Shown: piece by piece, positions 1 to 59,931 of the stretch | Position numbering within the stretch: the first letter of the stretch is position 1 | How the letters are laid out: every line of letters starts with the position of its first letter | NCBI GenBank assembly: GCA_010206265.1 | Contig: VIQV01000026.1 | Location: 1-64,000 of the forward strand | Direction: 5' to 3' | Length of the DNA: 64,000 nt | Source: Lachnospiraceae bacterium MD329 | GTDB lineage: Bacteria; Bacillota; Clostridia; UBA1381 | Program-made: the position numbers and the translations under genes | The notes under the pieces: generated by a model | Databases searched by the model: none | Seen by the model: only the letters and a program-made list of their open reading frames with translations | What the model was told of the DNA's origin: nothing

Positions 1-41
1 TCGTGCTTGTCCTTTGCAACATCAATACCGACTAAAATCAT
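1..41 (-). CDS. IS110 family transposase, N-terminal fragment
   Basis: Reading the minus strand from 41 gives MILVGIDVAKDKH, the N-terminus of the RuvC-like DEDD domain of IS110 transposases. The first catalytic Asp is in GIDVAKDKH. A ribosome site (GAGGTG) lies about 6 nt before the start. The gene leaves the window after 13 codons, so it cannot be said whether it is intact. In this family the enzyme cuts and joins donor and target DNA under guidance of an RNA encoded just upstream. Confidence 0.8.
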   Translation of the reverse strand, partial: MILVGIDVAKDKH

Positions 42-73
42 AAAAACACCTCATTTTAATAAATTTTTGACAC

Positions 74-233
74 TGTTTAGACCCACAGGGACTCTCTGCG
101 ATTGTAACCTTGTTCTAAATAAACCGTCATGCGGTATCTAACTGATTAACAACTGTACAAAGAGACTGTGGTTAGAGCCTCATTCAAACCATCAAGTGGT
201 AGGAGGAATTAACTAATCCACAGTATCTAAACA
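74..233 (-). ncRNA. Putative IS110 bridge RNA (target- and donor-binding loops)
   Basis: Two consecutive stem-loops lie between the element end and the transposase start, in the order expected for bridge RNA read on the minus strand. Loop 1 (165-224): ACTGTGG/CCACAGT plus TTAG/CTAA with one bulged base, an internal loop, then CCTC/GAGG and an ACCA/TGGT tip. Loop 2 (91-165): CTCT/AGAG, TTGTA/TACAA (102-106 with 156-160), TTGTT/AACAA (110-114 with 148-152) and an ACCG/CGGT tip (123-126 with 132-135). An outer 8-bp pairing joins 74-81 and 226-233. Loop 2 carries GTATCTAA, identical to 223-230 at the element end, as a donor guide should. Folding was done by eye. Confidence 0.65.
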
Positions 234-300
234 CAGTATAGCACATATCCAGAAAAAAGGATATTTAAACTATAACTATATAATACAAGGAGGTAATTTT

Positions 301-2343
301 ATGGAATATAAATTTAAAAATTACGAGGAAACGCCTCTTTTGGAAAAGCATTTAAATATGGGCGGAAAAAATCCTGACGGCGAAGAAATTAATGTTACAA
401 GCCGTTATTTCACGCGTGGCGGTAAACCGTGGATTGGAGTTATGGGAGAATTCCATTTTTCACGGTATTCACGAAATGAGTGGTACAGGGAGCTTTGTAA
501 AATGAAGGCAGGAGGTATCACGATTGTTTCAACGTATCTTTTCTGGATTTATCACGAGGAAACAGAAGGGAAATTTGATTTTTCGGGTGATAATGACATA
601 CGTACATTTATAACGGATTGTCAGAGAGCAGGACTGGACGTTGTGATAAGAATAGGACCGTGGGCGCACGGCGAATGCCGCAACGGCGGTTTGCCTGACT
701 GGCTTTTGACAAAACCGTATAAAATACGATGTAACGATACTGAGTACCTTGAAAAGGTAAAAAATTGGTATGAGCGAATTTATGAAGAGGTAAAGGGCTT
801 GTTCTATAAAGACGGCGGAAATATAATTGCCGTACAGCTTGAAAATGAGCTTACAGACGACGCAGAACATCTGGCAACGCTTAAAGAGATGGCTATTGAA
901 ATCGGAATGGTTGCGCCTATATATACGGTTACGGGCTGGAACAGCGCGTCAGGCGCAAAAATACCTGTGGACGAGGTTGTGCCCGTATTCGGCGGTTACT
1001 GCGAGGCGCCTTGGGAGAATCATACGCACCGTTTAAGTCCGTCGCCGCACTATTTCTTTAACAGAATGAGAAATGATTCGGCTATAGGCACCGATTTGAT
1101 TGCAGTTTCTGATGACAGTGACTGGCAGCTGCCGTATGACAAATATCCTTTTGCGACGTGTGAACTTGGCGGCGGTATACAGGTTACACATCACCGCAGA
1201 CCGATTATCAAACCTATGGACATATATGCAGTATCGCTTGTAAAGCTGGGTGACGGTAATAACCTTGCAGGCTATTATATGTACCACGGAGGTACAAATA
1301 AAATCGGTAAGCTGTCAACGCTTAACGAATCAAAGGCTACGGGTTACCCGAATGATTATCCGATACTGTCATATGATTTTCAGGCGCCGCTGTCTGAATA
1401 CGGCGAAGTGCGTGAGCATTACGGAATGTTAAATATGCTTCATATGTTTGTTCGTGATTTTGGTGAAAGTTTTGCGCCTATGGAGGCAGTTGACGCTCAG
1501 ATGCCGGTTACACCTGACGACACTTCTTCACTCAGATACGGTATGCGTACAGACGGCAAAAGCGGATTTGTATTTATAAATCATTATCAGCGTTTGACGA
1601 GGCTTGAAGATATTGAAAATGTTGTTATAAATACGGGTAATGTGATTTTTCCACCGATTAATGTCAGAGGTGATGTAAGCTTTTTTATGCCGTTTAATAT
1701 GGATTTGGGCGGAAATATGCTTGAATATGCAACTGCTCAGCCATTATTAAAGCAGGATAACGCATACTTTTTTGTCAGAATTCCAAATGTAAAAGCCGAA
1801 TATAAAATCAATGGAAAAGTGTATTCGGGAGATGTTATTGAATATGACGGAATAAAAATTGTAACGCTTTCGTTCGACGAGGCGCGTTATACCCGCAGAC
1901 TTGACAGCGGTATATTTATAGGCGGAGGGTGCGACCTGTATGAGGAAAACGGAAAAATTGTTTCCGTGCAGGACGGTGAATTTGTATGTAAAAAATGGAA
2001 CGGCAGTGAGTTTGAAACATTTACAGTAAATCAGCAGATATTTGACTGTGAAGTGACTATCGAAGATATTGAAACAGAACCGTTTGAACCGCTATATAAA
2101 GAGGAATTGAATATTGAGTGTGAGCGAAAGAGAACGTGGAAAAAAATAACCGTAAGCAGTGAATATGGTTTTGCTGAAACTAATTATACGGGTGACGCAG
2201 CCCAGATATACGCGGACGGTAAACTGATTGCGGACGATTATTGGTACGGTGTGCCGTGGAGAGTGCCGTGCAGACTGCTTTACGGAAGGGAATGTTATAT
2301 GGTAATATCCGAAATGAAGAACGATTTTTACAGGGAGGCATAA
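301..2343 (+). CDS. Glycoside hydrolase family 35 beta-galactosidase-like protein
   Basis: 680 aa. GH35 enzymes are retaining beta-galactosidases of clan GH-A that release terminal galactose, for example from pectic galactan. Visible here are the N-terminal substrate segment (GVMGEFHFSRY, about 46-56), RIGPWAHGEC (117-126), the acid/base region VQLENEL with probable acid/base E183, a probable nucleophile E288 in CELGGG, and the family signature YMYHGGTN near 327-334. There is no signal peptide, so it probably acts in the cytoplasm on imported oligosaccharides. An AAGGAGGT ribosome site precedes the ATG. uxuA follows 2 nt after the stop with its ribosome site inside the 3' end of this gene, so the two are co-transcribed. 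Confidence 0.88.
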   Translation: MEYKFKNYEETPLLEKHLNMGGKNPDGEEINVTSRYFTRGGKPWIGVMGEFHFSRYSRNEWYRELCKMKAGGITIVSTYLFWIYHEETEGKFDFSGDNDIRTFITDCQRAGLDVVIRIGPWAHGECRNGGLPDWLLTKPYKIRCNDTEYLEKVKNWYERIYEEVKGLFYKDGGNIIAVQLENELTDDAEHLATLKEMAIEIGMVAPIYTVTGWNSASGAKIPVDEVVPVFGGYCEAPWENHTHRLSPSPHYFFNRMRNDSAIGTDLIAVSDDSDWQLPYDKYPFATCELGGGIQVTHHRRPIIKPMDIYAVSLVKLGDGNNLAGYYMYHGGTNKIGKLSTLNESKATGYPNDYPILSYDFQAPLSEYGEVREHYGMLNMLHMFVRDFGESFAPMEAVDAQMPVTPDDTSSLRYGMRTDGKSGFVFINHYQRLTRLEDIENVVINTGNVIFPPINVRGDVSFFMPFNMDLGGNMLEYATAQPLLKQDNAYFFVRIPNVKAEYKINGKVYSGDVIEYDGIKIVTLSFDEARYTRRLDSGIFIGGGCDLYEENGKIVSVQDGEFVCKKWNGSEFETFTVNQQIFDCEVTIEDIETEPFEPLYKEELNIECERKRTWKKITVSSEYGFAETNYTGDAAQIYADGKLIADDYWYGVPWRVPCRLLYGRECYMVISEMKNDFYREA

Positions 2344-56157: not shown

Positions 56158-56258
56158 CAACAGAGTAGATTTATGCGCGTAAAGTGCAGGGTGAACGGGG
56201 AGTTGTCACCTTGACGAAAAGCAGTATGCTTGCGGTGCATAAGTCGCATCCCGCTGGA
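56158..56258 (+). ncRNA. Tetrahydrofolate (THF) riboswitch
   Basis: AGAGTAGATTTATGCGCGT at the 5' side, GTGAACGGGGAGTTGTCACC in the middle, ACGAAAAGC, then GGTGCATAAGTCGCATCCCGCT at the 3' side (in parts GGTGCATAAG and GCATCCCGCT): the conserved blocks of the THF riboswitch. ATTTATGC and GCATAAGT form its P2-like pairing. It precedes a folate transporter gene, the usual target. A later hairpin (TTGGC/GCCAA around 56277-56301) just before the ribosome site may carry the off state. Confidence 0.92.
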
Positions 56259-59642: not shown

Positions 59643-59732
59643 GGAGAGATGTCTGAGTGGTTGAAAGAGCCGGTCTTGAAAACCGGTGACGGTTTGCGCC
59701 GTCCGTGGGTTCGAATCCCACTCTCTCCTCCA
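59643..59732 (+). tRNA. tRNA-Ser (UGA)
   Basis: Acceptor arms GGAGAGA (59643-59649) and TCTCTCC (59722-59728), CCA encoded at 59730-59732. Anticodon stem CGGTC..AACCG type with anticodon TGA at 59677-59679. Long variable arm (GACGGTTTGCGCCGTC), as in serine tRNAs; T loop GGTTCGAATCC. The discriminator base is T, unusual for serine. Confidence 0.93.
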
Positions 59733-59840: not shown

Positions 59841-59931
59841 GGAGAAGTACTCAAGAGGCCGAAGAGGCGCCCCTGCTAAGGGTGTAGGTCGGGAAACTGG
59901 CGCGAGGGTTCAAATCCCTCCTTCTCCGCCA
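59841..59931 (+). tRNA. tRNA-Ser (GCU)
   Basis: Acceptor arms GGAGAAG (59841-59847) and CTTCTCC (59921-59927), discriminator G, CCA at 59929-59931. Anticodon GCT at 59875-59877, long variable arm, T loop GGTTCAAATCC. Confidence 0.95.

What the first reader, a model, noticed from the sequence alone, without database searches (positions are those of the whole stretch)
74..233. Complete IS110 bridge-RNA architecture with a donor loop matching the element end
The sequence shows two nested stem-loops between the transposase start and the element tip, in target-loop then donor-loop order on the minus strand. The second loop carries GTATCTAA (134-141), identical to 223-230 at the presumed left end, and the facing side carries CTAAATAA (115-122), sharing CTAAA with 227-231. 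Bridge RNAs whose loops match donor ends are known for IS110 elements. That this one is functional, and its target specificity, are inferences. It would give a new recombinase-RNA pair whose targets could be predicted.
Basis: partly seen in the sequence, partly recalled or inferred. Interest (0 to 1): 0.7.

Follow-up and report, generated by a model that had tools for sequence, protein, structure and literature searches.

The report
Bridge RNA aimed at ribosome-binding sites
This is the left end of a jumping gene of the known IS110 type, whose guide RNA steers it into the ribosome-binding sequence just before genes; the guide-and-target mechanism is already known, but this choice of target is unusual.

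Summary
Window 1-289 (minus strand) is the left end of an IS110-family element, cut off by the contig start. It does carry a bridge RNA with target loop first and donor loop second. The true end is the CT core at window 288-289, about 55 bases beyond the proposed tip, and the outer copy of the repeated GTATCTAA is kept in only 4 of 59 relatives.

Seven right ends in the same genome and about 110 related loci fix the real guides. Each element's own target guides match its own flanks far better than shuffled pairs do (left z=15, right z=14; 0 of 20,000 permutations each). The right donor guide covaries with the element end (21 T/A, 81 C/G, no exceptions). The excised junction builds a TTGAC-17-TATTAT promoter in 57 of 57 relatives. 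An exact empty site was found for one relative.

New angle: this Clostridia clade's left guides resemble the anti-Shine-Dalgarno of 16S rRNA. Of 91 insertions, 62 sit 5-15 nt before an ATG reading frame (6% at random positions). The window copy sits in the ribosome-binding site of a 680-codon gene. This is a new member of a known kind; activity is inferred, not shown.

The parts
1..41 (-). 5' end of the IS110 transposase gene (MILVGIDVAKDKH...), cut off by the contig start
   Evidence: sequence; relatives have a full ~390-residue transposase at the same place
75..278 (-). predicted bridge RNA region (three hairpins); the 5' end by promoter position would be near 273, the 3' end is not known
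   Evidence: fold of 75-278; conservation in 59 relatives
234..278 (-). 5' stem-loop of the bridge RNA
   Evidence: fold, -16.4 kcal/mol on its own
165..224 (-). target-loop hairpin
   Evidence: conserved stem with compensatory changes
201..209 (-). left target guide ATTCCTC-CT
   Evidence: matches left flanks; permutation test over the family
179..185 (-). right target guide GAATG-AG, complement of CT-CATTC
   Evidence: seven right flanks in the same genome match CATTC at 2-4 of 5 bases; permutation test over the family
92..164 (-). donor-loop hairpin
   Evidence: fold; nearly invariant in relatives, so stems have little covariation support
138..143 (-). left donor guide AGTTAG, equal to the right end AGTTAGTCT over six bases
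   Evidence: right ends of the element
109..113 (-). right donor guide ACAAG, complement of core CT plus TGT of the left end
   Evidence: A/G in the guide covaries with T/C in the left end, 102 of 102
280..285 (-). -10 box TATTAT of the junction promoter formed with TTGACT of the right end, 17-base spacer
   Evidence: 57 of 57 relatives
288..289 (-). CT core: true left end of the element
   Evidence: breakpoint of identity among copies and relatives
290..296 (-). left target in the host DNA (gene strand GAGGTAA), part of the Shine-Dalgarno sequence
301..2343 (+). gene entered just before its start codon (680 residues, glycoside hydrolase family 35-like by eye; no family search was run)
   Evidence: orthologues in 13 genomes of the genus

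Best explanation
The feature is the left end of an IS110-family element with its bridge RNA. Excision as a circle joins the right end (TTGACTTTTAATAGTTAGT-CT) to the left end (TGTATTAT...), which creates a promoter that transcribes the bridge RNA (5' stem-loop, target loop, donor loop). The donor loop pairs with AGTTAGT-CT-TGTAT of the circle. The target loop pairs with a site close to ATTCCTC-CT-CATTC, an antisense Shine-Dalgarno sequence. The recombinase exchanges strands at the CT core, and the element lands just before a start codon, its transposase pointing away from the gene, with GAGG left on the gene side. Shown from sequence: ends, core, guides, guide-target and guide-donor agreement, junction promoter, an empty site in a relative, and preference for start-codon-proximal sites. 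Inferred: transcription, binding, recombination, and that this copy is still active.
For: Own-pair guide-target matches beat shuffled pairs: left 5.22 versus 3.59 of 7 (z 15.4), right 4.67 versus 2.72 of 6 (z 14.2), 0 of 20,000 permutations; one pair per guide z 12.3 and 12.0; out-of-register matches drop to about 2.2-2.7. Donor base covariation 102 of 102. Junction promoter in 57 of 57. Seven right ends in the same genome. Empty site with only CT shared. Target-loop stems with compensatory changes. Transposase domains PF01548 and PF02371 and similarity to IS621, E 1e-21, in the relative P0001. 62 of 91 insertions 5-15 nt before an ATG frame versus 6.4% at random and 2 of 49 on the other side.
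Against: The transposase of the window copy is not assembled, so an intact protein is not shown for this genome. The left donor guide matches only six bases of the right end and the core pairing there is imperfect. Right flanks in this genome match the right guide at 2-4 of 5 bases, not perfectly. Permutations do not correct for relatedness of elements. No RNA or recombination data.
Confidence: 0.93

Rival explanations
1. One reading: the element ends near 233 and the donor loop recognises GTATCTAA at 223-230.
For: The octamer is present twice.
Against: Copies remain identical to about 293-298; the outer octamer is kept in 4 of 59 relatives; right ends carry AGTTAGTCT, not GTATCTAA.
Confidence: 0.01
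2. It is a bridge RNA, but the link to ribosome-binding sites is survivorship: insertions elsewhere harm the host and are lost, and the fixed C and T next to the core in the guide serve the protein or RNA structure, so the resemblance to the anti-Shine-Dalgarno is a by-product.
For: C at -1 is in 94% of distinct guides; elements with guides not resembling the 16S tail are also often before a start codon, 10 of 19.
Against: Guide and flank match element by element beyond the fixed bases (positions -4 to -7, z 4 to 8); 71% of guides share at least five bases with the 16S tail versus 29% of shuffled guides; guides resembling the tail are start-proximal more often (54 of 68 versus 10 of 19, p 0.04).
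Confidence: 0.35
3. The left ends in this genome are decayed remnants without function.
For: The transposase body is missing from the contigs.
Against: Six left ends identical over 250 bases or more and seven right ends with the same terminus, all at contig ends, point to recent multiplication and assembly collapse.
Confidence: 0.06

Closest known systems
IS621 and its bridge RNA (IS110 group; PMC11208160, PMC11208158)
   Same: RNA upstream of the transposase in the left end, 5' stem-loop then target loop then donor loop, CT core, left guide pairs with the bottom strand and right guide with the top strand, promoter rebuilt across the circle junction, DEDD and Transposase_20 domains.
   Different: Protein only distantly similar (best stretch E about 1e-12); IS621 is described as inserting into REP elements, this clade into Shine-Dalgarno sites; found in Clostridia.
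IS1111 group with seekRNA (PMC11187229)
   Same: DEDD transposase with RNA-guided choice of target.
   Different: There the guide RNA comes from the non-coding region downstream of the transposase; here the guide RNA is upstream.
ISCro4 transposase (PDB 9t56)
   Same: Same protein family by sequence (E 2e-18).
   Different: Target and RNA were not compared here.

Membership tests
IS110 family, IS110 group | DEDD RuvC-like N-terminal domain and Transposase_20 C-terminal domain | tested here: met
   PF01548 E 6e-41 and PF02371 E 5e-21 in the full-length relative P0001; the window itself holds only the first 13 residues
IS110 family, IS110 group | Guide RNA in the left end upstream of the transposase with two internal loops | tested here: met
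IS110 family, IS110 group | Target loop agrees with the flanking target on both sides of a core | tested here: met
IS110 family, IS110 group | Donor loop agrees with the element's own ends | tested here: met
   right donor guide covaries 102 of 102; left donor guide matches six bases, almost no variation to test
IS110 family, IS110 group | Promoter rebuilt across the joined ends of the circle | tested here: met
   57 of 57 by sequence; transcription not tested
IS110 family, IS110 group | Scarless insertion with only the core shared | tested here: met
   empty site of L029 in G010; not available for the window copy
IS110 family, IS110 group | RNA-guided recombination activity | not testable with these tools
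   needs an experiment
IS1111 group | Guide RNA downstream of the transposase | tested here: not met
   conserved RNA is upstream; element continues past the transposase stop for only some 120-190 bases
Rfam families | Match to a curated RNA family at gathering score | tested here: not met
   no hit in 1-300

The most novel reading that the evidence does not exclude
A clade of IS110 elements spread through Clostridia homes to translation starts: the left target guide imitates the 3' tail of 16S rRNA (CCTCCT), so the Shine-Dalgarno sequence of very many genes is a possible target, and the surrounding guide bases choose among them. The element lands between promoter and start codon while leaving a Shine-Dalgarno sequence intact, so it may act on the expression of the genes it enters.
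Probability: 0.55. Interest if true: 0.65.

Novelty: new member of a known kind. Interest (0 to 1): 0.5.

Why it matters
It supplies a large, naturally varied set of matched bridge RNAs, targets and donors (52 distinct left guides) from Clostridia, with defined ends and an exact empty site, useful for learning targeting rules. If the preference for ribosome-binding sites is a targeting property rather than survivorship, it is a guide RNA that finds genes by copying the ribosome's own recognition sequence. I found no report of this in the open papers searched; published large-scale IS110 surveys may hold these elements in supplements that I could not read.

Tried and rejected
A fold z-score of the single sequence is not informative. 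Rfam gives nothing here. An outward promoter in the left end that would drive the downstream gene: TATAAT is present at 279-284 but I saw no -35 at a proper distance by eye, so it is not claimed. A pattern search for predicted targets in the genome, one mismatch allowed, gave no excess over the backward control (37 versus 32), so it says nothing about target number. The exact empty site of the window copy was not found: the nearest genomes of the genus are about 70-76% identical at this gene and only show that many have a Shine-Dalgarno-like sequence just before the same start codon. Pairing of individual left and right ends in this genome was not attempted. No structure prediction was run, because similarity to IS621 was already significant by sequence. 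No covariance model was built, because searches with it would be circular for the loci already held.

Full report
What was checked. The window starts inside an IS110 transposase gene read on the minus strand (ATG at 41-39). The contig most likely starts there because the element is repeated: five other contigs of the same genome end in the same sequence at 100% reported identity. Where their sequences part from the window, the common left boundary is ...CCTC|CT|TGTATTAT, i.e. a CT core at window 288-289.

Relatives. A pattern from the conserved part of the RNA gave 83 stretches in bacterial genomes, mostly Lachnospiraceae and other Clostridia, 12 in viral contigs, and more in related genomes. 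Full-length relatives encode a transposase of about 390 residues directly after the RNA. The protein of one (P0001, from L143) has both IS110 domains and matches the IS621 and ISCro4 transposases of known structure.

Element ends. The left ends used here begin CT[T/C]GTAT[T/A]AT, and 55 of 57 right ends finish in AGTTAGTCT after TTGAC. The exact right-end motif occurs seven times in the window's own genome. Joined as a circle, the two ends give TTGAC[T/A], 17 bases, TAT[T/A]AT, a sigma-70-like promoter, in 57 of 57 elements. This is the arrangement described for IS621 (PMC11208160). One relative (L029 in G014) has inserted into an IS256-like transposase gene (assignment by eye). A genome of the same genus has the uninterrupted site at 87% identity across 310 bases, while the filled site splits into two pieces overlapping by CT only. 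L145 carries a paralogous empty-looking site at 79% identity across its junction.

The RNA. The stretch 75-278 folds into three successive hairpins: a 5' stem-loop, a target-loop hairpin and a donor-loop hairpin. In 59 aligned relatives the target-loop stems have compensatory changes (GC to AU in 7, GC to UA in 8, AU to GC in 16 sequences). The donor-loop part is almost invariant, so its stems get little support from covariation.

Target guides. For each element the 7 bases before the core in the left flank were compared with the left guide, and the 6 bases after the core in the right flank with the complement of the right guide. Own pairs match at 5.22 of 7 and 4.67 of 6 positions; shuffled pairs at 3.59 and 2.72; z 15.4 and 14.2, and no permutation of 20,000 as good. 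The result holds with one pair per distinct guide (z 12.3 and 12.0). Shifting the register removes the match. Shuffling does not remove relatedness among elements, so the z values are upper limits, but the guides differ widely. For the window element the guides predict ATTCCTC-CT-CATTC. All six left flanks end in CCTC-CT, and the seven right flanks match CATTC at 2 to 4 of 5 bases, against 1.1 on average for other elements' flanks.

Donor guides. The base after the core in the left end (T or C) agrees with its partner in the donor loop (A or G) in 102 of 102 readable cases. The left donor guide AGTTAG equals the right end AGTTAGTCT over six bases but hardly varies; L037, with AGTTAATCT at its right end, has a matching G to A change in the loop, a single instance.

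Where these elements insert. 62 of 91 left flanks have an ATG opening a reading frame of at least 50 codons (25 if it runs off the contig) 5-15 bases beyond the core, reading away from the element. The rate is 6.4% at random positions in the same flanks, and 2 of 49 on the right-hand side. 79 of 91 sites carry a Shine-Dalgarno-like 4-mer at the core, against 29 of 274 random AG positions. The guides themselves resemble the 16S anti-Shine-Dalgarno tail: 71% share at least five bases with it, against 29% when the guide is shuffled with the core kept. The 16S tail sequence was taken from general knowledge. In the window the element sits 11 bases before the ATG of a 680-residue gene, and GAGG stays on the gene side. 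Several orthologues in the genus have a Shine-Dalgarno-like sequence at the same place.

Reading. The mechanism is the known bridge-RNA mechanism of the IS110 group, with the details of ends and guides corrected. What I did not find described in the papers I could search is a clade that prefers ribosome-binding sites through a guide resembling the anti-Shine-Dalgarno. Whether that preference is targeting or survivorship is open. Guide-target matching argues for targeting; the fixed C next to the core and the 10 of 19 start-proximal insertions of elements with non-matching guides leave room for selection.

Noticed in passing
Relatives such as L056, L064, L072, L075, L077, L082, L087, L096, L120, L129, L137: The left end comes in two lengths: about 143-150 or 191-196 bases from the core to the donor loop. 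The longer class appears to carry a second hairpin after the usual 5' stem-loop.
   Followed up: partly
L141 and L142 (viral contigs): The two contigs share the right flank of the element but have different left flanks, as if a rearrangement had taken place between copies.
   Followed up: no
L145 2823-2928: A paralogous, element-free copy of the insertion region lies about 1.9 kb from the element in the same viral contig, 79% identical across the junction.
   Followed up: partly
G000 contigs C67:45484-46479 and C1:261449-262450: Two other full-length IS110 transposase genes in the same genome that were not matched by this bridge RNA.
   Followed up: no
G000 contigs C13 and C45: Diverged copies of this family in the same genome; C13 has CTCGTA at its left end with ACGAGG in the donor loop, the other state of the donor covariation.
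   Followed up: partly
window 56159-56258: THF riboswitch by Rfam, 91 bits.
   Followed up: no
window 59643-59729 and 59841-59928: Two tRNA genes by Rfam.
   Followed up: no
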